From: Bacillus gaemokensis
Lineage (GTDB): Bacteria > Bacillota > Bacilli > Bacillales > Bacillaceae_G
Reading direction: 5' to 3'
Assembly: GCF_001590835.1 (NCBI RefSeq)
Contig: NZ_LTAQ01000012.1
Location: 341,169 to 405,168 of the forward strand
DNA: 64,000 nt
The position numbers and the translations under genes were made by a program. The notes under the pieces are model-generated. The model made no database searches and was not told the DNA's origin. It saw only the letters and a list, made by a program, of their open reading frames with translations. Within the stretch, counting starts at the first letter, position 1, and each line of letters starts with the position of its first letter. This document shows positions 32,358-64,000 of the stretch, in pieces.

Positions 32358-33680
32358 ATGGGATTATTCGATAAATTTTTCGGGAACAAAAAGAAAGATG
32401 AACAAGGAGAAAATCAAAACTCTCTCGAAGAAATGAGAAAGCTGATTGACAAAACAAAAGAAGAAGAACCGAAAGAAAGTGAAAACAAAAATATCGGATT
32501 AGGTATTTCTATCAACCTCACACCAAACTACGAAGACGGAAGTATTACAATTTCTTCTTCTCCTGTTGGCGTATCTACTGGAAGTACCGCGACTGATTTT
32601 TATGTATATGAATGGTTCATCAAAGAAACTGGCGAGATTTTTTATGTAGGTAAAGGACGAGGAAATCGTTATAAAGAATATCATGCAAGAGCTTATGAAG
32701 CTGAAAAAATTCGCGAGCAATACGAAACCGACTCTCGTTTCGTTGCAACTGGATTAACAGAGGACGAAGCTATTGAACTTGAAAGTAAAGAAATGTCTAG
32801 GGTGTTAAACGAAACAAACGATAGATTAACGAACCGTGTAATCCCGTTGTTTGTTAATCGTGATAATGGTTATTCTCGTAGCCCTAACACACCCGAATTA
32901 AAATTTGAAACTGCTCCTGTGTTGTTTGCAAATGAAATTGATGAACATTACTTCGGGCAAAAGCCTAGAGCGTTTGACGAAGTAGAAGATAAGAACTTGA
33001 AAGCTGTTGTATTCATCACACGCAACATACGAGATGAAATCGACGTAATCTACGGCGGAAACCTAGAGAAGTATCAAGATGAAACTAATGCCCTTCTAAC
33101 AGCAAATGGCAAAAAGATACTAAAGAGCAAATACGCTAAGTCCGTTAGTGCATGGATATACGTAGGCGACGATGAAGTCCACAACTATGAGATAGACCAA
33201 CAACAAGCGTTAGAGAAATTAGGTAGAAACGTACCTACCTATCATCTGATTGATGTTTGGAAGTTTCTAAAAGAACAATACGGCGACGTTGTAGTAAAAA
33301 AGAATGAATCGTCTTCTATTAACCCCGTTCACTCACGCGTACCTTTATCTGAAATAAAGAATCTACACAACTGGGATAGAGGTTTCGACGAGGGTATGCC
33401 GTACTGGGAAAAAGGGGATAAAGAACGTAAGGCGGGCAACTTAGAAAAAGCTATCGAGTTGTTCGATAAAGCAAGATACAACGGCTACAACGTGCCTGCG
33501 CTATACACATCGTATGCTATGGCGTTTCGTAAACTGAAAGATTATGATAACGAAATTGCTATCATAGACGAGTGTATTGAGCGTTTACGTGCTGAAAAAA
33601 TAAACGTGAACCAAAATATCATTATCGGCATTAGAGACCGTCGAGCAAAAGCGCTTGAATTGAAACAAAAACAAAAGTAA
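32358..33680 (+). CDS. GIY-YIG nuclease-like protein with C-terminal TPR region
   Basis: A 440-residue protein. A charged N-terminus (1-45) is followed by a Ser/Gly-rich stretch and a GIY-YIG-type nuclease fold from about residue 81: VYEW stands for the GIY strand and FYVGKGRGNRY for the YIG strand with the downstream arginine; a conserved glutamate follows (EAIELES, ~137-144). Residues ~355-435 contain TPR-like helices (KAIELFDKARYNGYNVPALY). AAAGGGGG precedes the ATG. Base composition is richer in CG dinucleotides than its neighbours, suggesting transfer. I do not know a function; phage or plasmid defence or DNA processing is possible. Confidence 0.75.
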   Translation: MGLFDKFFGNKKKDEQGENQNSLEEMRKLIDKTKEEEPKESENKNIGLGISINLTPNYEDGSITISSSPVGVSTGSTATDFYVYEWFIKETGEIFYVGKGRGNRYKEYHARAYEAEKIREQYETDSRFVATGLTEDEAIELESKEMSRVLNETNDRLTNRVIPLFVNRDNGYSRSPNTPELKFETAPVLFANEIDEHYFGQKPRAFDEVEDKNLKAVVFITRNIRDEIDVIYGGNLEKYQDETNALLTANGKKILKSKYAKSVSAWIYVGDDEVHNYEIDQQQALEKLGRNVPTYHLIDVWKFLKEQYGDVVVKKNESSSINPVHSRVPLSEIKNLHNWDRGFDEGMPYWEKGDKERKAGNLEKAIELFDKARYNGYNVPALYTSYAMAFRKLKDYDNEIAIIDECIERLRAEKINVNQNIIIGIRDRRAKALELKQKQK

Positions 33681-37121: not shown

Positions 37122-37247
37122 ATGTGAAAAACGCTTGTGTCTTATCTTCCAAACTGGAAAGTGTTTGTACAAGCTTTTATCGTATTTTTCGTTCCTTATG
37201 CGGCCTCACGAGTTTTTAGCTGGATCCGTACATTAGAGAAAGAGTGA
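37122..37247 (+). pseudogene. Small membrane-protein gene with a stop at codon 2 (head of ger operon)
   Basis: AGGTGA followed 5 nt later by ATG is immediately followed by TGA; the frame then continues KTLVSYLPNWKVFVQAFIVF and FVPYAASRVFSWIRTLEKE to a TGA that overlaps the gerXA start. The conserved spacing and overlap suggest a real small gene, with one membrane helix, killed by a nonsense change in codon 2. A GTG at codon 6 could in principle restart it. Its identity is unknown; small extra subunits occur in some ger operons. Confidence 0.5.
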
Positions 37248-38008
37248 TGAGGATGAAAGAACAGGAATCAAAGATGAAGCGGATAGAAAAACAAACTGAT
37301 ACATATAAGGAGCAAAGTGGAACAGGTCATTTTACAGGCAATTTCACCATGGATTTAGCGAGTGTAAAAGAAGAAATTCGTTATAACTCAGACGTACACT
37401 TTCGCGAATTTAACATTGGGTGTACAGACGTTCGAGCGGCGCTTGTTTTTGTGGAAGGACTGTCGGATAAAGATCTTATCGATATGCATATTTTGAAGTC
37501 ATTGATGCTTAATTTTTATGAAGAGTATAAGGGTACATCGTTTTATATGGAAGGTATCATTTCAAAAGAGTTTATTAAGAATCGGGTCCTTTCCATTAGT
37601 GGCATAGAAGAAGTTCATTCTATAAAAGAGTTGATGTCAAAAGTGTTATTAGGTTCAACGGCACTTTTGATTGATGGATTATCAGATGTATTTATTCTTA
37701 ATACAAGAAAAGGAAAACCACGGAATATTGAGGAGCCTATATCAGAGGTGTCAGTCAGAGGCCCGCGGGTAGGTTTTACAGAAGTTTTATGCGATAATAC
37801 TGCTCTTTTGCGCCTTCATGGTGAAAATGATGGGTTATCATTAACAAAACTCCAGGTAGGAAAGCGAGATTGAAGAGTTTTGGTGTGCCCTATGCCAGTC
37901 CAGCCGTTCTTTATCGATTTAGTGATTCGCATGCCACTTCAGATGATGAAACGTCGTCCGAAAATGTTGAATCCGAAAGATTCAATACGAAAAGGAAGTG
38001 AAGAGTGA
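37247..38008 (+). pseudogene. Truncated spore germination protein GerXA
   Basis: The first ~205 codons are a good GerA-family A subunit N-terminal region (DVRAALVFVEGLSDKDLI, GFTEVLCDNTALLRLH). After LQVGKRD a stop occurs, and the next bases encode only the family C-terminus: SFGVPYASP, then in another frame FFIDLVIRMPLQMMKRRP and a Lys-rich tail. Family members are about 490 residues, so roughly 230 codons including the membrane region are deleted and the junctions are frameshifted. It cannot make a working receptor subunit. Confidence 0.88.
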
Positions 38009-39112
38009 TGATTACCGGCCCGAAAGATCGAATTCCTACTTCGCAAGCAGTTGTCATTCTTATTAATTATGTACCTGCAGTAGGAATTCTCACTCTGCCT
38101 AGAACAGCTACGGAGAAATTAAAGACACCGGATGTTTGGATAACTGTTATTGTCGGCGGGTTAATTGCGATGGTTGCAGGGGTAATCATCGTTAAATTAA
38201 GTCAACAGTTTCCTGGAAAAACTTTTTATCAATATAGTCAAGAAATTGTAGGGAAATGGGTGGGGGCGTTATTTAGTCTACTCATTATAGGCTACTTTGT
38301 TATGCTTTCCTCATTTGAAGTTAGAGTGCTAGGTGAAGTAACAAGTTTTTTTATTGGAAGGCACCCCTGGGTGGGCTATTATCATGCCGTTTATGTGGGT
38401 GAGTATTTATTTGAACTTAGGTGGTATAAATTCGATTTCTCGTCTGTTTGAAATAATATTTCCAATTACAGTCTTCATTTTTTTGCTGACTTCCTTTATG
38501 AGTATTGGAATGTTTGAGTTAGATAATCTCCGTCCTGTATTAGGATTAGGAGTTCTCCCTGTGTTAAAAGGTTTAAAAACAACAACTCTCGCATATTCAG
38601 GAGCCGAAATCATGTTGCTCCTTTTGGCATTCATGAAACATCCACTCCAAGCTGTAAAAGTCGTTCTCATCGGAACTGCTATCCCCTTAGTCTTTTATGT
38701 TATTACAGTTGTTATGGTGATAGGAGCGTTTTCAGTTGATGGGGTGGTAATGAGAACCTGGCCTTCAATTGATCTTATGCGAAGTTTTGAAATCCCCGGT
38801 TTGATATTTGAACGGTTTGAATCTTTATTACTTGTGATATGGATCATGCAAATATTTGCAACGTATACAATCTGCTACTATGCGGCTGCCTTGGGATTGG
38901 CACAGCTTTTTAACAAGAATAGTCACTCATTTATGTACGGGTTACTTCCGGTTATTTATATTATTGCTTGGATACCGAAAAACATTAATGATCTATTTAA
39001 ATTTGGGGACATGATTGGCAATATAGCAATTGTATTATTCGGTATCCTGCCACTGCTTCTTCTTGTAATTTCGAGATGGAGGAAAAGAAAGAATGAACCG
39101 AAGTGTGAATAA
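38008..39112 (+). pseudogene. Frameshifted spore germination protein GerXB
   Basis: A GerAB/YndE-type amino-acid permease-like subunit (start MITGPKDRIPTSQAVVILIN) that runs for about 116 codons, then shifts frame at a run of seven T near 38346-38352. The other frame continues EGTPGWAIIMPFMWVSIYLN to the normal end. Six T would restore one 367-residue frame with ten or so helices. The start overlaps the gerXA stop (TGATG), showing operon structure. GerXB proteins sense or transport germinants in the inner spore membrane. Confidence 0.88.
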
Positions 39113-40297
39113 TGTACGATTTCTTTTCGTTGTATCATCAGTTCTTTTGCTTCTGGCTCTTACAGGATGTTGGAGCAGTCATGAAATTGAAGAACTCGGT
39201 TTCGCGGTAGGTTTGGCAATTGATAAAGGAAAGGAGACGAATGTTGAGAGAGAGATAGAAGAACAAGGAGGAGGTTATCAGAAAAAAATCTTGTAACATC
39301 AACCTATCAATTGGTTACACCACAATTATCATCAGGAGGAGGAAAAGGTGGAATATCACAACAAAAACCTTACACGAATATTTCTGAAACTGGAGATTCC
39401 CTTCACCAATCGATTCGTGAAGTTGCATTAAGAAGGCAGCGGCCTATAATTTTTCATCATACGAAAGTGATTGTTGTTAGTGAAAGTCTTGCACGGATGT
39501 ATAGTTTGAAACAGCTGCTGGATATTTATATCCGTGATAATGAGATGAGACCAAATTGTCTCGTGTTGATTAGTAAAGGGCAAGCTAGCGAGACATTGAA
39601 ATCGAGGGGAAAAGGAGAAATTCCAGCGTTCCTTTTGCTTGGAATTGCGGATAATCAATATAGATCATCGCGGATTTTACCTCCTATGCCGCTTGCTAAA
39701 TTACCGGGAAAGATACGGTTAGGAGATAGTTTTCTTTTGCCAAAGGTGATTTCGATAAATGGAGAAGTGAAATTTGCGGGCGCTGCCGTAATCAAAGGGA
39801 AGACAAAAAAACTGCGTGGTTTTCTGAATGAAAATGAGTTGGAAGGCTTAACATGGCTAACTGGGAAAGGGAAAAGCGGTTTAGTGAAAAGTTTTGATGA
39901 AAAGACAGGAAAACCCATCATGTATGAAGTGAAATCTATGAAAAGTAAAATTCAACCCCACGTTAAAGGGGATAATATCTCTTTTGATGTGGATATCCAA
40001 TCAGAGGGACGGATATCTGAAAACTGGGTCACTTTGGGAAAACCTTTTGAAAATAAGTTTCTAAAAAGTGTAGAAAAAGCTGCGAAACAAGAAGTGAATC
40101 AATTGGTGAAGCGTACATTGAAAAAAATTCAAAAGGAATATCAGACTGATGTAGCTTGCTTCGGTAACAGATTGAAAATTGAGTATCCAAAAGTATGGAA
40201 AAAGGTCGAAAAAGATTGGGATAAAACATTTAGTAAGGTTCCAATCAAATACAGCGTAAAGTTAACGATCCAGGACTATGGTACGGAAGGGTCTTAG
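39093..40297 (+). pseudogene. Frameshifted spore germination lipoprotein GerXC
   Basis: A GerAC-type lipoprotein: signal and lipobox LLLALTGCWSSHEIEELG at the N-terminus. The frame breaks after about 66 codons at a run of seven A (39282-39288) and resumes in another frame as LVTSTYQLVTPQLSSGG through the rest of the family sequence. Eight (or five) A would give one frame of about 400 residues. It overlaps gerXB by 20 nt and is followed by a terminator. Confidence 0.88.
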
Positions 40298-52598: not shown

Positions 52599-52638
52599 TT
52601 AAACCTCTTTGTTGTATAAAACAAAGAGGTTTTTATGT
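52599..52638 (+). terminator. Terminator hairpin upstream of the NRPS cluster
   Basis: AAACCTCTTTGTT pairs with AACAAAGAGGTTT, then TTA. It is far from the ytbE end, suggesting that something between them was lost or that it is the terminator of a long 3' leader. Confidence 0.8.
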
Positions 52639-52867: not shown

Positions 52868-53100
52868 CGTATAAAAAAATTTACATAATTCATCCTTATA
52901 ACTAAATAAAAGGAGACTTATTATAAATTAATATAAGGATGATATATGTTTATAAATTAGAGCTTACTTATTACATTATGTTCTTTATTAAGAATGAAAT
53001 GCAGTAGGTAAGAGTGATTGGAGACTTATATATAGATATTTTAGTAAATTGGATAGAAATGTAATAGCACTTAATTTAATTCGCAGGAGGAGTTAGAGAT

Positions 53101-56100
53101 ATGAGGCAGCAGTCTTTGCATTTAGATTCAAATATTATACATGTAATCTTTGAAGAACAAGTTAATCGGACACCTAATCATACAGCGCTAGTATGCGATT
53201 ATGAAGAAATTAGTTACCAAGAGTTAAATAAAAGAGCTAATAAATTAGCTAGAGTGATTGAAAAACATAGTAATAGGAGAAACCAGATAATAGGAATTTA
53301 TTTAGATAAATCAATTGAATCTGTTATTACGATGTTAGCGATATTAAAATCGGGAAATTGTTATTTGCCAATAGATGTAAATTATCCTCAAAACAGGATT
53401 GATTATATCATTGAAGATAGCAAAATCAATATTCTAGTTAGTAGTGATAAAACAGATATACAAAAAATTAGAAATTTTGATGGGCACATACTTTATTTAG
53501 ATCAAGCCTTAATGGAACAAGAGGCGGATCATAATTTAGAAAATGTGAATGAAGAACAGGATTTAGCTTATATTATCTATACTTCAGGTACTACCGGAAA
53601 CCCAAAGGGTGTTATGGTTCAACATAAAAACGTAATCGGATTAATGAAAAATACATTAATGAATTTTTCGTTTTCAAATCAAGATACTTGGTCGATTTTC
53701 CATTCGTTTTGTTTTGATTTTTCTGTATGGGAACTGTATGGTGCACTTTTATATGGTGGAAAGGGAGTCATTATTAAAGAAAATAAAGCGAAACAAACTG
53801 GAGAATTCTTGGAAATATTAAAAAGAGAACAGGTTACAGTATTAAATCAGGTACCTTCCTCTTTCTATAATTTAATAGGTGAAGAGTTAAAATACGAAGA
53901 CAAAGCACTTAACCTTAAATATATAATTTTTGGTGGAGAGGCATTGCAGCCGATAAAATTGCAAAGATTTAAAGAAAAGTACAATAATACTAAGTTTATT
54001 AATATGTATGGAATTACTGAGACAACTGTGCACGTTACCTTTAAAGAGATAACAGATTTAGAAATAAAAAATAATAGAAGTAATATTGGAAAACCAATCG
54101 AAGGCCTTAGAATATATTTGTTAAATGAAAAAAATGAAGAAGTTGGGTTTCTTAATAAGGGAGAAATTTGTGTCGGGGGATATGGTGTTGCAAGAGGGTA
54201 TTTAGGGAAAGAACAACTTACAAAAGAAAGATTTATTAGCAATCCTTTCTGTAAAGACGAGATCATTTATAAGTCCGGAGATTTAGCTATTAGATTAGAA
54301 AACGGGGAATATGAATATTTGGGAAGAGGTGATTCCCAAGTGAAAATTCGTGGATATAGAATTGAGTTGGCAGAAATTGAAAAAGCGTTGTTGCAAAATA
54401 AAAATATAAATAAAGCAGTTGTACTGGATATTGAAAATGAGGATGGGCAAAAGGACTTATATGGTTTTTTGGCGATGAGTCATCCTTCAAAATTAAGTGA
54501 AATAAAAGAAGCTTTATTGAAAATTATTCCAAGTTATATGCTGCCTTCCTTTTTTATTGAAATAGATCGAATCCCGACAAATCACAATGGGAAGATAGAT
54601 AGAGAAGCATTGGAGCGCCAGAAAATTAACTTTATGAGAGATAATGATTTTGTTGCAGCTAGAACGAAAGTAGAAATACAAGTTATTCAACTACTTAAAG
54701 AATTATTAAAGTTAGAACAGATTAGTATTTATGATAATTTTTTTGATATTGGTGGAGATTCTTTAAAAGCCACAAAATTAATTAATAACATAAAATCACA
54801 TTTTGAAAAAACAATTACTTTTAAAGAAATTTTTGAGAGTAAACATATTGCTGAATTATGCGATATCTTAAATGAGAAGGAAGTAGAAAAAGAGGTAATA
54901 GAAAGCTTTGCAGAAAAAGAATATTACTCTGTATCATCTGCGGAAAAACGTATGTATATTTCACAGCAATATGGGGAGACGAATACAGCATATAACGTTA
55001 TCACAGCTGTGAGATTGAAGGGGAATTTAAATATACTCCATTTAGAGAAATCTTTAAATGCAGTATTAAATCATCATGAGAACCTACAATCGTATTTTAC
55101 TGTTCGAGATGGGGAAATCATAAAAAAACTAGATAGAAGAGCCCAAGTTCATTTGAAGATACTATATGGGAAAGAAGAAGATATATTAAAAAATAAGGAT
55201 CAAATTATTGAAGAATTTGATCTTGCGAAAGCGCCATTATTCAAAGCAGTTTTGATAAAGACTTCCGAAGAACATCATATTTTAATAATGAATTTTCATC
55301 ATATTATAGTGGATGGGACCTCTTTAGAACTTCTATTAAAAGATATATTTAGAGAATATGCAAATCAGTCAGTCGTACCAGAAAAGATGAAATATGTAGA
55401 ATATTCGACTTTAGAAACAACTTGGTTGGAGAGTGAACAGGGAAAAAGAGAAGAAAATTATTGGCTTAAACAGTTAGTTCCTGATTTAGGGAAATCTGAA
55501 ATTATTTCAGACTATGTAAGACCACATACAAGGAATTTTAAAGGAAAAACAGTTAATTTCAAAATTGAAGAGAAAATTATTAGTAATTTAAAGAGTGTAG
55601 CCAAAAGAGAAAAGCTAACTTTATATATGCTATTAATGGGATTATATAAAGTTTTAATATCTAAATATTCTAACAAAGAAGAAGTGACGCTTGGAACTGC
55701 TGCGTCCGGAAGAAAATATAAAAATTTAGAAAATACAGTTGGAATGTTTGTAAATACATTAGCAATCCAAAGTGAGCCATCCGCCGATAAAATCTTAGGA
55801 CATTATTTGAAGGAAGTAAAAGAAGTATGTATGAATGCTTTTGAGTATCAATCTTATCCTTTTGATAGACTTGTTGATAAGTTAGGTGTTCAAAGTGATC
55901 CTGGTAGAAATCCGTTGTTTGACTATCTGTTTATATTTCAAAATGAGGATAGGGTACAAGATTTTGAATATGTTAAAGATCTAGTCATTACGAGAGATAC
56001 TACAGCTATTACCGCGGATAGTTCTAGATTTGATATTAGTCTAGAAGTAATTGAAGAAAACGATATATTTATGCTCCAATTCAATTATGACGTGAATCTT

Positions 56101-59100
56101 TTTAAAGAAAAAACAATTAGAGGCTTAGCTTCTCATTATATTCATTTATTGTCTAATATCAACTTTACAATTTCTAAAAAAATAAAAGAAATAGAGTTAG
56201 TGACCTCAGAAGAACAACATGTATTAGCAACGTTTAATAGAACAGAAAAAGACATTTTTGAGTATGGAGATACAATTCAAGCTTATATAAATAAAAAGTT
56301 AGAGTATGGTGGAGACAAATCAGCCGTTTATTCAAAAGGAATAGTCTATACCTACAATGATTTAGATAAACAGGCAAATCAGTTAGGAAATGTACTAAGG
56401 AAAAAAGGATTAACAAGAAATGATGTTGTTGCGATTATATTAGAAAGGAATGCAAAAATTCCTCTTAGTCTGCTTTCTGTATTACGTGCAGGAGGTGTGT
56501 GCTTACCAATTGATGCAGAATTGCCGAAAGAAAGAATTGAATATATGTTGAGAGATAGTAAAGCACGTTTCGTTATTACACAGAAGGATTTGATGGGGAA
56601 AATAGGGGGATGGAATGAAGACTGTATCGTACTTTTAGATTGTGAATCTGCATATAGACAAGAAGAATCTACCCCATTACATGTAGTAAATGAAGCAAAT
56701 GACGTAGCGTGTATCATTTATACATCAGGTACAACAGGGAATCCAAAAGGTGTTATGTTAAAAAATAATTCTCTAATCAATGCAGCAAGATATATGGCTG
56801 AACAACTAAATGTTAAAAATAGCAACGTTTTATCTGTAGCATCAATTTCTTTCGATATGTTTTTTATTGAAATGTTTATTGCTATCACACTCAATGGTGA
56901 ATTAGTTATTGCTGATGCTAAAGAAAGATTGGATAACGGGAAATTAAAAGATCTTATTCAGAAAAGGAACGTAGAAATTACTTTAACAACACCATCGAGA
57001 ATTAAGAGTTTTATTAATAGTGAGGATGTAGAAGCACTTAAAGGATTAAGCCGAATGATCTTTGGTGGGGAAAATTTAACTGAAAATCTTGTTGGAGAGA
57101 TTAGAAAGATAACAAATGCTAAAATATATAATTTTTATGGCCCAACTGAAATTACGGCGTATTGCACAGGAACAGAAATAAAGGAAACAGAAACGGTGAC
57201 GATTGGTAAACCTGTGTCTAATACAACTATTTATATAATGAGCCCAGATTTGAAACAGCTACCTATAGGGGTACCTGGAGAAATTTGTGTAGGTGGTATT
57301 GGAGTTGCGAAGGGATATATAAATAGAGAGGAATTGACTAAGAGCAAATTTGTTGCGAATCCATATCGCTTGGAAGAAACCATATATCGAACAGGAGATA
57401 TTGGTATATGGACAGAGGATGGAGAAATTAAATATATTGGTCGAATTGATGAACAAGTAAAAATTAGGGGATACAGAGTAGAGCTAGAAGAAATTGAGGA
57501 AAAGATAAGAGAAGTAGAAGGAGTAACAAATTGCGTAGTTTTAGCCTTAGAACATGCGAATGGAGAAAAGTATCTGTCTGCATATGTTATATGTGATATC
57601 AATGGCATGGAAGAAATACAGGGAACGCTTAAAAATAAGCTACCAGAGTATATGATTCCGCATTTCTTTACAAAAATAGATGAGATTCCTGTTACGCGAA
57701 ATGGGAAAGTAGATAAACGAAAATTACAAGAAAGTAGTCCAACGAAAGAGCTGAATAGAACAGTAATAAAAGCAGAAAATAATGTTCAAGAAAAGATAAT
57801 AGATACATGGAAAAAAATATTAAATACAAATAACATTGGTATTTATGATAATTTTTTCCATCTCGGAGGAGACTCAATTAAAGCAATTCAATTGTTAAGT
57901 GCATTAAGAAAACAAGGAATTCATACTTCAACAAAAGAGATTCTAAACAGTCCAACAATAGACGAATTATCTCAAAAAGTAAAAATAATAGAGCGGAAAA
58001 ATGAAAGAGGAATCTTTGAAGAAGTGAGCGGGAATGTTAATTTTGGAGCAATCCAAAACTTTTATCTAAATTGTAACCAAAAAATACACGATCGTTTTAA
58101 TCAATCTATATTAATACATCGTGAAAATGGATTTGATGAGCATATTGTAAGAAAAGTTTTTAATACTATTATGAAACACCATGATGCTTTACGGATTATG
58201 TATCAAATAGAGGATGAAAAATACGTTCAATTTAATAGGAAATTTGAAGAGGATATGTTCCATTTAGAGACTCACTTTTATGACAATGCAAACGTAAAAG
58301 AAGTTATAAAAGAAGTCGGTGAACATATACAAGGAAAGGTTAGTATTGAAGAAAATAAATTGGTTAGCCTCGGAGTTTTTAAAGGAAATCAGGGGGGGTA
58401 TCTCTTTATAGCAATTCATCATTTTGTAGTGGACGGCGTATCTTGGCGTATTCTAGTAGAAGATTTTGAAACTATTTATGAAAGTTATGCCAATAATGAA
58501 GAACTAAAGTTTGAACCAAAGACGGTATCCTTTAAGGAATGGGTACACAAAATAGAAAGTTATAGTAATAGCAATGACATTATGGAAGAAGTTCCATATT
58601 GGAAACGAATTATAGAACAACAAAATCTGTTGAAGATTAGAGAGAAAAAAGAAGCAGTAAAGTGCATAGGAAGAACGAAAGATATACGTATGACATTAGA
58701 TAAAGAAGAAACTGAAGTGTTACTGAAACGAACAAATAAGAAGTATCATACTGAGATCAATGATATTTTACTAACAGCTTTAATGCTAGCTATTACAGAA
58801 AATAGGAAAGAAAATAAGTTAATTATTAATTTAGAAGGACATGGTAGAGAAGAAATGATGAAAGGTATGGATGTAACTAGAACAGTAGGGTGGTTTACAT
58901 CCATGTATCCAGTACTGCTAGAACTAAAAGAAAATAAAGATATTTCATACTGGATTAGAGATATTAAAGAAACTCTAAGGAATGTTCCGAATAAAGGAAT
59001 TGGTTACGGTGTTTTACGATATATGAAAAAGGGAAAGACTGACGTATTGCCGTTAAATGATATAGAAATTAGTTTCAACTATATGGGTGAAATTTCGAGT

Positions 59101-59418
59101 GTGAATGAAGAAGAATATAAGGTGTTAGATTTTGAAAGAGGTAGAGAAATTTCAGAAGATGTCAATCTTGATATTGGAATAGCGTTTAACTCAATTATAG
59201 TAGATAACCAATTAAAATTAACTATTACGTATGATGTTAATGAATATGATAGAGAATTTGTGCAGGAGTTAGGCGGAAGGTTCTTACAAAAACTACGATT
59301 AATTAATTCTAGTTGTAAAGAAGTTGAAGAAGCTAAATATGTACCAAGTGATTTAACTTATAGTGAAATTTCTATTGATGAACTCGATTCTCTTGAAGAA
59401 TATATTAATGAAATATAA
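53101..59418 (+). CDS. Nonribosomal peptide synthetase, modules 1-2 (A-T-C-A-T-E)
   Basis: A 2105-residue synthetase. Module 1: adenylation domain (1-515; YIIYTSGTTGNPKG at 158-170) and carrier domain (GGDS, Ser554). Module 2: condensation domain (~610-1045; HHIIVDG near 733), adenylation (~1050-1545), carrier (GGDS, Ser1592) and epimerisation domain (~1640-2090: HHFVVDGVSW at 1773-1782, EGHGREE, FNYMGEI). There is no leading condensation domain, so chain building starts here. By hand alignment the first pocket is D206, F207, W210, N249, I276, G278, M302, V310, H311 and K, the threonine code DFWNIGMVHK. The second (about DMILIGFAYK) matches nothing I recall; its residue becomes D. GCAGGAGGAG precedes the ATG. 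Confidence 0.93.
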   Translation: MRQQSLHLDSNIIHVIFEEQVNRTPNHTALVCDYEEISYQELNKRANKLARVIEKHSNRRNQIIGIYLDKSIESVITMLAILKSGNCYLPIDVNYPQNRIDYIIEDSKINILVSSDKTDIQKIRNFDGHILYLDQALMEQEADHNLENVNEEQDLAYIIYTSGTTGNPKGVMVQHKNVIGLMKNTLMNFSFSNQDTWSIFHSFCFDFSVWELYGALLYGGKGVIIKENKAKQTGEFLEILKREQVTVLNQVPSSFYNLIGEELKYEDKALNLKYIIFGGEALQPIKLQRFKEKYNNTKFINMYGITETTVHVTFKEITDLEIKNNRSNIGKPIEGLRIYLLNEKNEEVGFLNKGEICVGGYGVARGYLGKEQLTKERFISNPFCKDEIIYKSGDLAIRLENGEYEYLGRGDSQVKIRGYRIELAEIEKALLQNKNINKAVVLDIENEDGQKDLYGFLAMSHPSKLSEIKEALLKIIPSYMLPSFFIEIDRIPTNHNGKIDREALERQKINFMRDNDFVAARTKVEIQVIQLLKELLKLEQISIYDNFFDIGGDSLKATKLINNIKSHFEKTITFKEIFESKHIAELCDILNEKEVEKEVIESFAEKEYYSVSSAEKRMYISQQYGETNTAYNVITAVRLKGNLNILHLEKSLNAVLNHHENLQSYFTVRDGEIIKKLDRRAQVHLKILYGKEEDILKNKDQIIEEFDLAKAPLFKAVLIKTSEEHHILIMNFHHIIVDGTSLELLLKDIFREYANQSVVPEKMKYVEYSTLETTWLESEQGKREENYWLKQLVPDLGKSEIISDYVRPHTRNFKGKTVNFKIEEKIISNLKSVAKREKLTLYMLLMGLYKVLISKYSNKEEVTLGTAASGRKYKNLENTVGMFVNTLAIQSEPSADKILGHYLKEVKEVCMNAFEYQSYPFDRLVDKLGVQSDPGRNPLFDYLFIFQNEDRVQDFEYVKDLVITRDTTAITADSSRFDISLEVIEENDIFMLQFNYDVNLFKEKTIRGLASHYIHLLSNINFTISKKIKEIELVTSEEQHVLATFNRTEKDIFEYGDTIQAYINKKLEYGGDKSAVYSKGIVYTYNDLDKQANQLGNVLRKKGLTRNDVVAIILERNAKIPLSLLSVLRAGGVCLPIDAELPKERIEYMLRDSKARFVITQKDLMGKIGGWNEDCIVLLDCESAYRQEESTPLHVVNEANDVACIIYTSGTTGNPKGVMLKNNSLINAARYMAEQLNVKNSNVLSVASISFDMFFIEMFIAITLNGELVIADAKERLDNGKLKDLIQKRNVEITLTTPSRIKSFINSEDVEALKGLSRMIFGGENLTENLVGEIRKITNAKIYNFYGPTEITAYCTGTEIKETETVTIGKPVSNTTIYIMSPDLKQLPIGVPGEICVGGIGVAKGYINREELTKSKFVANPYRLEETIYRTGDIGIWTEDGEIKYIGRIDEQVKIRGYRVELEEIEEKIREVEGVTNCVVLALEHANGEKYLSAYVICDINGMEEIQGTLKNKLPEYMIPHFFTKIDEIPVTRNGKVDKRKLQESSPTKELNRTVIKAENNVQEKIIDTWKKILNTNNIGIYDNFFHLGGDSIKAIQLLSALRKQGIHTSTKEILNSPTIDELSQKVKIIERKNERGIFEEVSGNVNFGAIQNFYLNCNQKIHDRFNQSILIHRENGFDEHIVRKVFNTIMKHHDALRIMYQIEDEKYVQFNRKFEEDMFHLETHFYDNANVKEVIKEVGEHIQGKVSIEENKLVSLGVFKGNQGGYLFIAIHHFVVDGVSWRILVEDFETIYESYANNEELKFEPKTVSFKEWVHKIESYSNSNDIMEEVPYWKRIIEQQNLLKIREKKEAVKCIGRTKDIRMTLDKEETEVLLKRTNKKYHTEINDILLTALMLAITENRKENKLIINLEGHGREEMMKGMDVTRTVGWFTSMYPVLLELKENKDISYWIRDIKETLRNVPNKGIGYGVLRYMKKGKTDVLPLNDIEISFNYMGEISSVNEEEYKVLDFERGREISEDVNLDIGIAFNSIIVDNQLKLTITYDVNEYDREFVQELGGRFLQKLRLINSSCKEVEEAKYVPSDLTYSEISIDELDSLEEYINEI

Positions 59419-59435
59419 GTAAAAGGGGAAAAGAA

Positions 59436-62400
59436 ATGAGTAAACTAGCAATTAAAGATATTTATCCTACTACTTCTATGCAAAAGTCAATTATGTTTCA
59501 TTCTTTAATGAACACTGAAGATTATAAAGTAAAAATAGAATTGGAATTAGATGGACAAGTTAATGTACAAGCACTACAAAAAAGCTTTCAAGAATTAGTA
59601 AGTCGTTATGATATTTTTAGAACAATTTTTCCGCGGAAAAAAGTTAAGGAAAGTGTACAAGTCGTTCTACAAAGTAGAGAGGTAGCACTAGGTTATGTTG
59701 ATTTAAGCGAAGGGGATGATAAATCGCAAATACAAAAAATCAATGAGTATTGGAATGAAAATAGTACATTTCAATTAGAAAAAGACATTCTTGTGAAAAT
59801 GGCTCTCTTTAAATTAAATAAAAAAGAGTATTCTTTACAGATTTGTTTTCATCACATCATTATGGACGGATGGTGTTTGGAGCTCTTTTTAAAAGAAATC
59901 TTTGAGCTATATCATTCCTTCGTAGAAGAAAAAGACATAATACAAAGAAGACCAAAACAATATAAGGAATATATCAACTGGCTACGAGCTCAAAATATGG
60001 AAGAGGCTGCATTGTATTGGGGGAATTATGTAGAAGGTTATGAAAAAGAAATTATCCTTCCACATTTAGGAGTAACGGAAGCATATTCTCAACAAATTGA
60101 AGAAATGATATTTGAAAAAGAAGCCTTAGAAAAAATGACCCAATTAGCTAGAGAAAATAATTTAACATTAAACACAATTGTACAGGTAGCCTGGGGGATT
60201 GTATTGCAAAAATATACAAATGCCGATGATGTAATATTTGGATCAGTGGTATCCGGGAGAAATGTCCCGGTAGATGATGTTGAAAAAATTATGGGACTTT
60301 TCATTAATACACTTCCTACTAGGATTAAAACAGAAAAGAAAGAAACAATTTTACAATTGTTAATCAAGCTGCAAAGAGAGAATAATAGATCAAAAGAATA
60401 TGAGTACTATTCTCTCTCAGATATTCAAGAAAAAACAATATTAAAAAATAAGTTAATCCATCATATTATGGCATTTGAAAATTACGAGTTTGAATTAGAG
60501 AACATAAATCAAAATAATGAATTAAAAGTAAAGAACCTTCAGTCTGTAGAACGAAGTAACTATCCTTTGAATTTACTTGTATACCCGGGCGAAAATTTAG
60601 TAATGAAGTTTGTCTATAACAGTCATGTCTATGAACAAAGGTTTATTCAAAGACTGAAGGAAAGTCTGTATAAAGTGTTAAGGGGTATGCTGGATAATGT
60701 TGAACAGCCAGTTGAAGAAATAGAAATTGTAGGAGAAATAGATAATCAAAGAATACAAGAGGAGTTTAATCAAACAGAGAATGGGGCTCCAATTCGTGAA
60801 GAAACGGTACAAAAGTATATTTTAAGAAGAATGCAGGAAGCTGGTGATTCTCCAGCCCTATCTTCAAATGGGATGAGTTATTCGTATAACGAATTAAATC
60901 GAAAAACAAATCAAATTGGTCGATATATAAGAAGTAAAGGTGTACAACCAAACGGTGTTGTAGGTATTTTGATGAAGAGGACTGCGAAGGCTCCATTAGC
61001 AATCTTAGGAGTTTTAAAAGCTGGAGCGGCGTATCTTCCTATAGATGCTACATTACCGAAAGAAAGAGCAGAGTATATGCTCAAAGATAGTGGTGTAAAT
61101 CTTCTTATCACAGATAGAGAGTTAGAAAGCGGGTTTAATTTCCAAGGGGAAGTTATAAATATAGATGATGAATTCATTTCTCAGGAATGTGATGAAGCGA
61201 TTGAAGTGCTAAGTAGTAAAGAGGATTTAAGTTATGTAATTTATACTTCTGGCACAACAGGAAGGCCGAAAGGAGTAGGTGTTCGAAATCAGTCTCTTTT
61301 AAATACAGCTGAGGAAACACATATCAGATTAGGGGAACGAGCTGGTGGAGTCTTATCTACAGCTTCGATTTCATTTGATATGTTTACAATGGAGTTATTT
61401 ATTGCAATTGCCGGGAAACAAGAGCTTGTAATTGCAGATGAAGAACAAAGAATGGATAACATTTTACTTTGTGACTTAATAGAAAAAAAAGATATTGTGA
61501 CGCTTTGTATGACACCTTCAAGAATTGAATCTATCGTTCATGATCGTAGATGTACAAATGCCTTAAAGAAAATTAAAGTCATAAAATTCGGTGGAGAAGT
61601 GTTGCAGGATAGTACAGTAAAGAGATTGCAGGAAAAGACAAATGCTCGAATTTTTAATGGATATGGTCCAACAGAAGTAACTATCTATTGTACATTGCAA
61701 GAAATTAAAAAAGGTGAAAAGGTGACAATCGGAAAGCCTATATCGAATATGCAGGTATTTATATTGGATAAAAATCAGAATGTTATGCCAATAGGGGTGC
61801 CAGGAGAGATTTGTGTAGGGGGCATAGGGGTAGCAAAAGGATATTTAGGAAATGAAGATTTAACGAATCAGAAGTTTGTAGATATGCGGCATGTAACAAA
61901 AGGAAAGTTATATAAAACGGGTGATTTAGGAAGATGGACGGAAACTGGTGAACTCGAATATTTAGGGAGAGTAGATGAACAAGTAAAAATTCGAGGTTAT
62001 CGTGTAGAGCTTGAAGAAATAGAGAGCCAAATAAAAAATTTGAATGGTATCAATCAGTGTGCTGTTTTAGGAATTACGTATGAAGGTAGTGTAACAAAAA
62101 GCTTAGTAGCATTTGTGACAAGTAAGCTAGAAGTAGAAGAAGATAAAATGAAAAAGAATTTGTTAAAAAGTCTACCTGAGTATATGATTCCTTCTCGTAT
62201 TTTGTGCGTAGATCATATACCAATTACGACAAATGGCAAGGTAAATAAAAAGGCGCTAGAAGGAATTGCTAAAGAAAAGTTACATGTATCGGCATATAAG
62301 AAAGCAGTATCCGAGGTTCAAAAAGAAATTGAAGAAGTTTGGAGAGAGTTGCTATTTATTGAAAATATATCTATTGAGCAATCTTTCTTTGAAATAGGTG

Positions 62401-64000
62401 GTAACTCGATATTAGCGATGATGCTTTCTTCAAGATTGAGTGAGAAATTTAATAAAAATATTTCGGTAAAAGACATTTTTACAAACGATACAATTGCAAA
62501 ATTAGAAAGAGTAATTGTTGAGAATGCAAAGGGAAATATAAGTAAAGCTGCGTTAATAGAGAATGTAGGAAAGAAAGAATATTATCCAGTTTCTAGTGCT
62601 GAAAAAAGAATATACTTGCTCGACCAGTATGAAAATGGAAAAGCATATAATTTAATTAAAGCTTTTAATATTTATGGGCAATTAGATGTTCTGAAGTTAA
62701 AGAAAAGTATACAAAAATTAATAGGTATCCATGAAAATCTAAAAGGAAGCTTTAAATTTATTGAAGAAAATTTAGTGAAAGTCCTCAATGAAGAAAATTT
62801 GGTAGAAGTAAAACATTATACGATGACAGAAAATGAGCTGTTTGAACAAAGCGAATTTTTAATAGAAGATTTCGATTTATCAACAGGTCCGTTAGTAAAA
62901 CCAGTATTAATTGAAATGAAAGATACAGAGTATCAATACGTTCTCATTCTAAACTTCCATCATATCATCGTGGACGGAAGATCGTTAGAAACAATTACAA
63001 ATGATTTGTTCAAGTTATATAACGATGAAGAAATAGAAGCGAGTAGAGTTAGATATGTTGATTATGCTAGTTGGGAAAATGAATGGAAAGAAACAAAAGA
63101 GGAAGAAGAAAGATTTTGGATTGAAAGTTTAAGGGATACACCTTCTAATATAGAATTAGCTACCGATTATAGACGGCCGGTAGTGAAAAAATTTACTGGG
63201 AATACTTTAGAGTTCAAAGTGGACGATGAAATATTTTCTAATTTAAAGGTAGTAGCGAAACAAGAAAAAGTTACCTTATATATGCTCCTAATAAGTGCCT
63301 ATAATCTATTGTTATCGAAGTATACAGGAAAGGAAGACATTGTATTAGGAACTGTTGTAAATGGAAGAACATCCAAGGAGTTAGAAACTACCGTGGGTAT
63401 GTTTGTAAATACATTAGCTCTTAGAAGTTTTCCAAAAAGAGATCTTACGTTTAAAGAATATATAGCTGCGTTCAAAAAGATTTGTATAGAAGCTTTTAAT
63501 CATCAAGCATATCCTTTCGATGAACTTGTGGAAAAGTTACAACTAGATTCTAATCCGAGTAAAAACCCTCTTTTTGATTACTTGTTTATTTTACAAGAGG
63601 GAGAAAATGAAGTAATTAAAACGAATGGATTAAGGGTAGAAAATAGTACAAACAAATTCCTGCCGAATGTATCCAAATTTGATATAACGTTAGAAGCAAT
63701 TCAAGAAGAAGTGGGGCTTGTGCTTCAAGTAAACTATGACACGTGCTTATTTAAAGAAGAAACAATTCAAAGCATAGTCAACAATTATATTCATATTCTT
63801 AAGCATGTGAATGCAGTGTTAGAACAGGAAATAAAACACATTGAAGTTGTAGAAGAAAAAGAGAAAAAAGATATTCTGTTTGGGTTTAACCAACTAGAGA
63901 TAGATGATTTTGAAGAGGAACGTACAATCCAAAAATATATTGGTAGAAAATTGCATTCAGGAAATGATAAAAATGCTTTATATGTCAAAGGTGTAGCGTA
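59436..64000 (+). CDS. Nonribosomal peptide synthetase, C-A-T-C-A... (runs off the window)
   Basis: An open frame of over 1520 codons with no stop before the window end, starting 17 nt after the first synthetase with AAAGGGGA before the ATG. Order: condensation (HHIIMDG at 139-145; N-terminal DIYPTTSMQKSIMFHSL fits a type that accepts a D-residue donor), adenylation (YVIYTSGTTGRPKG near 600), carrier (GGNS, Ser991), second condensation (HHIIVDG at 1175-1181) and the start of another adenylation domain. The third pocket reads about DMMCKGGIYK and I cannot assign it. Acceptance of the epimerised upstream residue agrees with the E domain of the partner protein. Confidence 0.92.
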   Translation, partial: MSKLAIKDIYPTTSMQKSIMFHSLMNTEDYKVKIELELDGQVNVQALQKSFQELVSRYDIFRTIFPRKKVKESVQVVLQSREVALGYVDLSEGDDKSQIQKINEYWNENSTFQLEKDILVKMALFKLNKKEYSLQICFHHIIMDGWCLELFLKEIFELYHSFVEEKDIIQRRPKQYKEYINWLRAQNMEEAALYWGNYVEGYEKEIILPHLGVTEAYSQQIEEMIFEKEALEKMTQLARENNLTLNTIVQVAWGIVLQKYTNADDVIFGSVVSGRNVPVDDVEKIMGLFINTLPTRIKTEKKETILQLLIKLQRENNRSKEYEYYSLSDIQEKTILKNKLIHHIMAFENYEFELENINQNNELKVKNLQSVERSNYPLNLLVYPGENLVMKFVYNSHVYEQRFIQRLKESLYKVLRGMLDNVEQPVEEIEIVGEIDNQRIQEEFNQTENGAPIREETVQKYILRRMQEAGDSPALSSNGMSYSYNELNRKTNQIGRYIRSKGVQPNGVVGILMKRTAKAPLAILGVLKAGAAYLPIDATLPKERAEYMLKDSGVNLLITDRELESGFNFQGEVINIDDEFISQECDEAIEVLSSKEDLSYVIYTSGTTGRPKGVGVRNQSLLNTAEETHIRLGERAGGVLSTASISFDMFTMELFIAIAGKQELVIADEEQRMDNILLCDLIEKKDIVTLCMTPSRIESIVHDRRCTNALKKIKVIKFGGEVLQDSTVKRLQEKTNARIFNGYGPTEVTIYCTLQEIKKGEKVTIGKPISNMQVFILDKNQNVMPIGVPGEICVGGIGVAKGYLGNEDLTNQKFVDMRHVTKGKLYKTGDLGRWTETGELEYLGRVDEQVKIRGYRVELEEIESQIKNLNGINQCAVLGITYEGSVTKSLVAFVTSKLEVEEDKMKKNLLKSLPEYMIPSRILCVDHIPITTNGKVNKKALEGIAKEKLHVSAYKKAVSEVQKEIEEVWRELLFIENISIEQSFFEIGGNSILAMMLSSRLSEKFNKNISVKDIFTNDTIAKLERVIVENAKGNISKAALIENVGKKEYYPVSSAEKRIYLLDQYENGKAYNLIKAFNIYGQLDVLKLKKSIQKLIGIHENLKGSFKFIEENLVKVLNEENLVEVKHYTMTENELFEQSEFLIEDFDLSTGPLVKPVLIEMKDTEYQYVLILNFHHIIVDGRSLETITNDLFKLYNDEEIEASRVRYVDYASWENEWKETKEEEERFWIESLRDTPSNIELATDYRRPVVKKFTGNTLEFKVDDEIFSNLKVVAKQEKVTLYMLLISAYNLLLSKYTGKEDIVLGTVVNGRTSKELETTVGMFVNTLALRSFPKRDLTFKEYIAAFKKICIEAFNHQAYPFDELVEKLQLDSNPSKNPLFDYLFILQEGENEVIKTNGLRVENSTNKFLPNVSKFDITLEAIQEEVGLVLQVNYDTCLFKEETIQSIVNNYIHILKHVNAVLEQEIKHIEVVEEKEKKDILFGFNQLEIDDFEEERTIQKYIGRKLHSGNDKNALYVKGVA

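What the first reader, a model, noticed from the sequence alone, without database searches (positions are those of the whole stretch)
53101..64000. Uncharacterised NRPS assembly line starting Thr, D-X, X
The architecture A-T-C-A-T-E / C-A-T-C-A... starts without a condensation or acylation domain, so the peptide should begin with free threonine, followed by a D-residue. The cereus-group NRPS products I can recall (bacillibactin, petrobactin, cereulide, kurstakin, zwittermicin) do not have this start: kurstakin needs a starter condensation domain, bacillibactin a DHB module, and cereulide hydroxy-acid modules. The cluster sits beside an ordinary ytbDE module after a 1-kb AT-rich gap, like an inserted island.
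Basis: partly seen in the sequence, partly recalled or inferred. Interest (0 to 1): 0.8.

Follow-up and report, generated by a model that had tools for sequence, protein, structure and literature searches.

The report
Orphan peptide assembly line, threonine first
The end of this window holds the first two genes of an ordinary modular peptide-making enzyme that should start its product with an unmodified threonine followed by a mirror-image amino acid; its product is unknown, but orphan lines of this kind are common in these bacteria.

Summary
Two intact genes, 53101-59418 and 59436-64000 (cut by the window end), encode a nonribosomal peptide synthetase: A(Thr)-T-C-A-T-E / C-A-T-C-(A). A1 reads DFWNIGMVHK, the DhbF-Thr pocket; profile scores fit C (L-donor), epimerase, C (D-donor), C (L-donor), so Thr / D-X / X is consistent. 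Nothing precedes A1: the start codon, behind a good ribosome-binding site, lies about 11 codons before it, with in-frame stops upstream. The closest whole-protein match (37-38 %) is a fusaricidin-type synthetase (Thr, D-Val), which has a first C domain. The A2 and A3 pockets resemble none of 114 codes read, so those residues cannot be named. Cereus-group genomes appear not to be held, so the rest of the cluster, its spread and its product could not be checked; "island" is only weakly supported. Verdict: real, product unassigned, a new member of a very well-known kind.

The parts
52601..52632 (+). intrinsic terminator-like hairpin between the aldo/keto reductase (ytbE-like) gene and the NRPS genes
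   Evidence: 13-pair stem followed by a T-rich tail; 1 found against a mean of 0.1 in shuffles
53085..53090 (+). ribosome-binding site of ORF1 (AGGAGG)
   Evidence: read from the sequence; in-frame stops upstream
53101..59418 (+). ORF1, NRPS subunit 1: A(Thr)-T-C-A-T-E plus docking tail
53134..54618 (+). A1, pocket DFWNIGMVHK, threonine
   Evidence: same code as DhbF-Thr in PMC4169593
54682..54867 (+). T1 carrier domain, serine in IGGDSLKA (54748-54771)
   Evidence: PF00550 528-589
54919..56226 (+). C2, L-donor (LCL) type, HHIIVDG at 55297
   Evidence: PF00668 607-1042; LCL 416 bits against 226 and 174
56263..57750 (+). A2, pocket DMILIGFAYK, substrate not assignable
57862..57885 (+). T2 carrier motif LGGDSIKA
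58009..59394 (+). epimerisation domain (HHFVVDG, EGHGRE, RTVGWFTSMYP, FNYMGE)
   Evidence: E 414 bits against 82 and 59; motifs; extent from PDB alignments
59341..59415 (+). C-terminal docking (COM donor-like) tail, VPSDLTYSEISIDELDSLEEYINEI
   Evidence: resembles the TPSDFS...L..EL tails of epimerase-ending subunits in L126 and L127; COM by recall
59436..64000 (+). ORF2, NRPS subunit 2, cut by the window end: C-A-T-C-(A)
59454..60755 (+). C3, D-donor (DCL) type, HHIIMDG at 59850
   Evidence: PF00668 7-440; DCL 433 bits against 259 and 218
60783..62270 (+). A3, pocket DMMCKGGIYK, substrate not assignable
62325..62513 (+). T3 carrier domain
   Evidence: PF00550 964-1026
62958..62984 (+). C4, L-donor (LCL) type; the active-site motif HHIIVDGRS is marked
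   Evidence: LCL 430 bits against 210 and 164
63924..64000 (+). first residues of a probable fourth A domain, cut by the window end
   Evidence: TIQKYIGRKLHSGNDKNALYVKGVA resembles the start of A2

Best explanation
This is the front part of an ordinary NRPS operon of a Bacillus, by recall of the cereus group. A1 adenylates L-threonine and loads it on T1 with a free amino group (inferred from domain order and pocket). C2 joins it to residue 2, chosen by A2, and the E domain epimerises it so that residue 2 is D (inferred; the domains carry their motifs). The tail of ORF1 docks to the N-terminus of ORF2, whose D-donor C domain accepts the Thr-D-X chain and adds residue 3; a further C domain passes it to module 4, outside the window. 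Release, tailoring, export and activity are unseen. The likely product is a Thr-D-X-X-... peptide, not acylated at the first step, most probably a secreted antibiotic or signal (inference from the class).
For: Domain content; C/E subtype scores fitting their positions; motifs; Thr code exact in A1 (PMC4169593, PMC2533009); ribosome-binding site, in-frame stops and no ORF over 55 aa in the gap; terminator-like hairpin before the operon; docking tail like those of epimerase-ending subunits; a comparable A-first opening in G202.
Against: The later part of the cluster is not visible, so an acylating enzyme or trans-acting C domain there cannot be excluded. 19 of 20 relatives with DNA in hand have a C domain in front of the A1 equivalent, so loss of a starter domain is conceivable. 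A2 and A3 specificities are unknown, and nothing shows that the operon is expressed.
Confidence: 0.85

Rival explanations
1. The line once began with a starter condensation domain, as in fusaricidin synthetase, and lost it; the present start is a truncated remnant that may or may not work.
For: In 19 of 20 whole-length relatives with DNA in hand a C domain lies directly in front of the A1 equivalent; the best matches are fusaricidin-like.
Against: AGGAGG 10 bases before the ATG, ATG about 11 codons before the A domain, in-frame stops upstream, and no ORF over 55 aa in the gap; both genes are otherwise open; G202 has a comparable A-first opening.
Confidence: 0.08
2. The product is acylated or otherwise capped on the threonine by an enzyme encoded elsewhere in the cluster, so it is a lipopeptide after all.
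For: Many Bacillales peptides of this class are lipopeptides (recalled); the rest of the cluster is unseen.
Against: No loading domain on ORF1 and no ORF over 55 aa in the 1-kb gap.
Confidence: 0.15

Closest known systems
   Same: Modules 1-2 align with ORF1 over about 2100 aa at 37-38 % identity: A(Thr)-T-C-A-T-E; Thr then a D residue (PMC10562733, passages).
   Different: FusA is one six-module protein with a C domain before A1, and its A2 is assigned to Val; here there is no first C, two separate subunits and an unknown A2 code.
   Same: First protein starts with A(DFWNIGMVHK, Thr), then C, A and an epimerase-like domain by motif and position, with no C in front.
   Different: 31 % identity; second A reads DAWFLGNVVK (Leu by recall); a further C sits in the same protein; later modules differ; product unknown.
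A-first initiation modules of tyrocidine, gramicidin and bacitracin synthetases
   Same: Begin with A-T and load an amino acid (recalled); LgrA and TycA are among the best PDB matches by sequence.
   Different: Different first residue and order; LgrA carries a formylation domain (recalled).
Bacillibactin synthetase DhbF
   Same: Identical 10-letter Thr pocket (PMC4169593, passage).
   Different: DHB-Gly-Thr order with a terminal thioesterase; here Thr is first and an epimerase follows A2.
Kurstakin synthetase Krs
   Same: Cereus-group NRPS with Thr first in the predicted peptide (PMC12206863, passages).
   Different: Predicted as D-Thr first; here the epimerase is in module 2.

Membership tests
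modular NRPS with an A-first initiation module | first module is A-T with no C, F or acyl-loading domain in front | tested here: met
modular NRPS with an A-first initiation module | catalytic and carrier motifs of A, T, C and E domains present | tested here: met
modular NRPS with an A-first initiation module | C after an epimerase is of D-donor type, other C domains L-donor | tested here: met
   leave-one-locus-out recovered 82 of 97 labelled domains, 14 of the 15 misses being among the 43 labelled E by a rough rule; only 11 D-donor examples, and some loci are near-identical, so the control is not fully independent
modular NRPS with an A-first initiation module | release domain (TE or R) in the cluster | not testable with these tools
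   beyond the window; no genome held for it
fusaricidin synthetase | C domain before the Thr module | tested here: not met
fusaricidin synthetase | six modules in one protein | tested here: not met
   ORF1 ends after module 2
fusaricidin synthetase | Thr at module 1, epimerase in module 2 | tested here: met
   PMC10562733
kurstakin synthetase | epimerase in the first (Thr) module | tested here: not met
   order from PMC12206863; E follows A2 here
bacillibactin synthetase | Gly then Thr, fed with DHB | tested here: not met
   A1 is Thr and first; an E domain follows A2
koranimine synthetase | module order of the koranimine cluster | tested here: inconclusive
   Only that genome G003 (Peribacillus frigoritolerans T7-IITJ) has 3 partial matches to ORF1 at E <= 1e-60, of 32 to 36 % identity; the cluster itself was not located

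The most novel reading that the evidence does not exclude
A2, A3 and perhaps the beginning of A4 form a little-known subfamily of adenylation domains (A2 and A3 47 % identical to each other, at most 40 % to any other A domain read, with Met at position 236 and, in A3, Lys at 299) that select monomers not represented among known pockets, so the line makes a new free-threonine peptide with several unusual residues, one of them D.
Probability: 0.25. Interest if true: 0.5.

Novelty: new member of a known kind. Interest (0 to 1): 0.28.

Why it matters
If the cluster is complete and expressed, it would give a peptide with a free N-terminal threonine and a D residue at position 2, and two adenylation pockets whose monomers are worth determining. 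It would add one chemotype and two specificity codes, not a new principle.

Tried and rejected
Empty or uninformative: own-genome search (none held); ORF1 scan of genome contigs (77 stretches, none confirmed) and of viral contigs (no stretch); ORF2 scan of viral contigs (7 stretches, none confirmed). Searches used thresholds too strict to be informative; no count rests on them. One search read several loci on the wrong strand and was replaced for those loci.

Naming A2 and A3 failed: no paper in the library holds either code string. PMC12283262 lists DMFCAGLIWK-type codes as flexible towards Thr (passage); these share 6 of 10 letters with A3 and 4 of 10 with A2, too weak to use. A Gly reading was considered because 8 of the 12 loci cut for the A2/A3 profile carry DILQMGMVWK-like pockets (Gly by recall), but the window codes do not match it and an epimerised Gly makes no sense.

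The Thr-X-Asn-Asn plasmid cluster of B. cereus CMCC P0011/P0021 (PMC12206863) was considered; the paper says all but one of its new peptides come from clusters with a CAL or C-starter, and no plasmid record reached 60 % identity to ORF1. Koranimine was set aside because a title in the search listing ties it to Peribacillus; it was not tested further. The HxlR, MFS and aldo/keto reductase genes as cluster genes: rejected, since the MFS gene stands directly before the ytbE-like gene in 54 of 80 loci fetched with that protein, an HxlR gene lies within 4 kb in 53 of 80, and alignments of ORF1 over 300 aa occur in only 4 of 80.
Full report
WHAT IS THERE. ORF1 (53101-59418, 2105 aa) and ORF2 (59436 to the window end, 1521 aa read) are open and 17 bases apart. 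Pfam gives AMP-binding x2, PP-binding x2 and Condensation x2 in ORF1, and Condensation x2, AMP-binding and PP-binding in ORF2. The best PDB relatives by sequence are linear gramicidin synthetase A and tyrocidine synthase 1. To tell condensation from epimerisation I labelled Condensation-type domains of fetched loci by their position, built three profiles (43 epimerase, 43 L-donor, 11 D-donor) and scored the window's four: L-donor 416, epimerase 414, D-donor 433, L-donor 430 bits, each well above its next class (226, 82, 259, 210). Leave-one-locus-out recovered 82 of 97 labels; 14 of the 15 misses were among domains that my rough rule had called epimerase, and some loci are near-identical, so the control is imperfect; the window margins are wide. 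The E domain also has EGHGRE, RTVGWFTSMYP and FNYMGE (known as E motifs by recall). ORF1 ends with a tail like those of epimerase-ending subunits in L126 and L127. ORF2 ends within what looks like the start of a fourth A domain.

START OF THE LINE. AGGAGG at 53085-53090 precedes the ATG of ORF1, in-frame stops lie upstream, and the gap has no ORF over 55 aa. The A domain begins about 11 aa after the start. A terminator-like hairpin at 52601-52632 lies between the ytbE-like gene and the operon. So the first module is A-T, without a C, formylation or acyl ligase domain. The Rfam scan of the whole window at gathering scores found only a tRNA and the tmRNA, so no T-box or other riboswitch was recognised before ORF1.

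SPECIFICITY. Alignment-based reading gives DFWNIGMVHK for A1, DMILIGFAYK for A2 and DMMCKGGIYK for A3. As a control the same reading returns known-looking codes elsewhere, for example DLTKVGHIGK in a B. spizizenii locus (Asp by recall). DFWNIGMVHK is given for Thr in P. larvae and B. subtilis DhbF (PMC4169593, passage) and in cyanopeptolin synthetase (PMC2533009, passage). Of 116 distinct A domains found in loci L081 and later, 114 gave clean codes: 25 carry the Thr code; none has Met at 236 or Lys at 299; A2 shares at most 4 of 10 letters and A3 at most 5 of 10 with any. This set is biased, since nearly all were fetched as relatives of the window's own domains, and some come from near-identical genomes. 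A2 and A3 are 47 % identical to each other and at most 40 % to the rest. Their monomers cannot be named here.

RELATIVES. In plasmids 2999 records match ORF1, each with its best place under 60 % identity; the top-ranked has 35.7 %. Single A domains also stay under 60 %: A3 in 2762 records, A2 in 2753, A1 in 208 at E <= 1e-80, with BamC of bacillomycin D first at 48.7 %. A genome-contig scan, which needs an exact match to one of six short peptides, confirmed none of 77 stretches. At E <= 1e-250, 12 of 397 genomes of the order of Ectobacillus funiculus match ORF1; at E <= 1e-280, 77 of 344 of the order of Paenibacillus alvei; the best listed identity is 38 %. These searches scored only the top one or two candidates in each genome. 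The pockets of one top match, G609, read DFWNIGMVHK, DAF-LGCTFK, DASTLAGVCK, DFWNIGMVHK, DLTKIGEVGK, DFPNFCIVYK, followed by thioesterase-like motifs. This order fits fusaricidin, Thr-Val-Phe-Thr-Asn-Ala (PMC10562733, passages); I read the pockets of no other such genome in full. Searches list more whole-length matches than I had DNA for. In 20 for which I had it, I looked at what precedes the A1 equivalent: 19 have an in-frame C domain. In nine loci that match like G609 this domain scores only 207-228 bits as L-donor and less in the other classes, compatible with a starter-type C (inference). One (L109, G202) starts with A, as the window does, with Thr, then C, a DAWFLGNVVK module (Leu by recall) and an epimerase-like domain. 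The opening is therefore uncommon in this sample but not unique.

LIMITS. The gene order and the tmRNA tag GKQNNLSLAA fit the cereus group by recall. So cereus-group genomes seem to be absent from the collections, and absence of close relatives here says nothing about that group.

SURROUNDINGS. The HxlR, MFS (ytbD-like) and aldo/keto reductase (ytbE-like) genes form a common unit: MFS directly before the reductase in 54 of 80 fetched loci, HxlR within 4 kb in 53 of 80, alignments of ORF1 over 300 aa in only 4 of 80. They are ordinary neighbours. GC is 30.7 % (ORF1) and 32.1 % (ORF2) against 36.9 % for 1-52077 and 22.7 % for the gap. No tRNA lies in the gap, and its repeats are short. Insertion is possible but untested.

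KNOWN OR NEW. Surveys report unassigned NRPS clusters in the cereus group: unknown NRPS clusters present in under 5 % of cereus strains (PMC5686519, passages); 588 species-specific cluster families of all types in B. cereus, said to be mainly NRPS, RiPP and PKS-NRPS hybrids (PMC10626522, passages); in B. clarus ATCC 21929 two NRPS regions without any similar known cluster and two at 30-33 % (PMC7643830, passages); and numerous uncharacterised ones in Vietnamese isolates (PMC10672896, passages). My literature searches on this point (listings, plus passages of the papers named) showed no description of this particular cluster, but the library is partial, I saw passages only, and supplements were not open to me. 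I file it as a new member of a well-known kind, product unassigned.

Noticed in passing
37244-40297: A spore-germination (ger) operon that looks degraded: the permease ORF begins only at position 109 of its Pfam model and the GerAC ORF at position 31 of its N-terminal model; the 209-aa ORF before them looks like a GerA fragment (by eye, not searched).
   Followed up: partly
52883-52949: An 18-nt inverted repeat (89 % complementary, 31 nt apart) about 150 bases before the NRPS start, possibly an operator; it lies in very AT-rich DNA and may be chance.
   Followed up: no
32358-33680: A 440-aa ORF without any Pfam match at E 0.001.
   Followed up: no
   Followed up: partly
L126 (NZ_CP033045.1, Mesobacillus foraminis plasmid): Five NRPS genes in a row on a 551-kb plasmid, one reading Thr-Thr with an epimerase-like end.
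   Followed up: no
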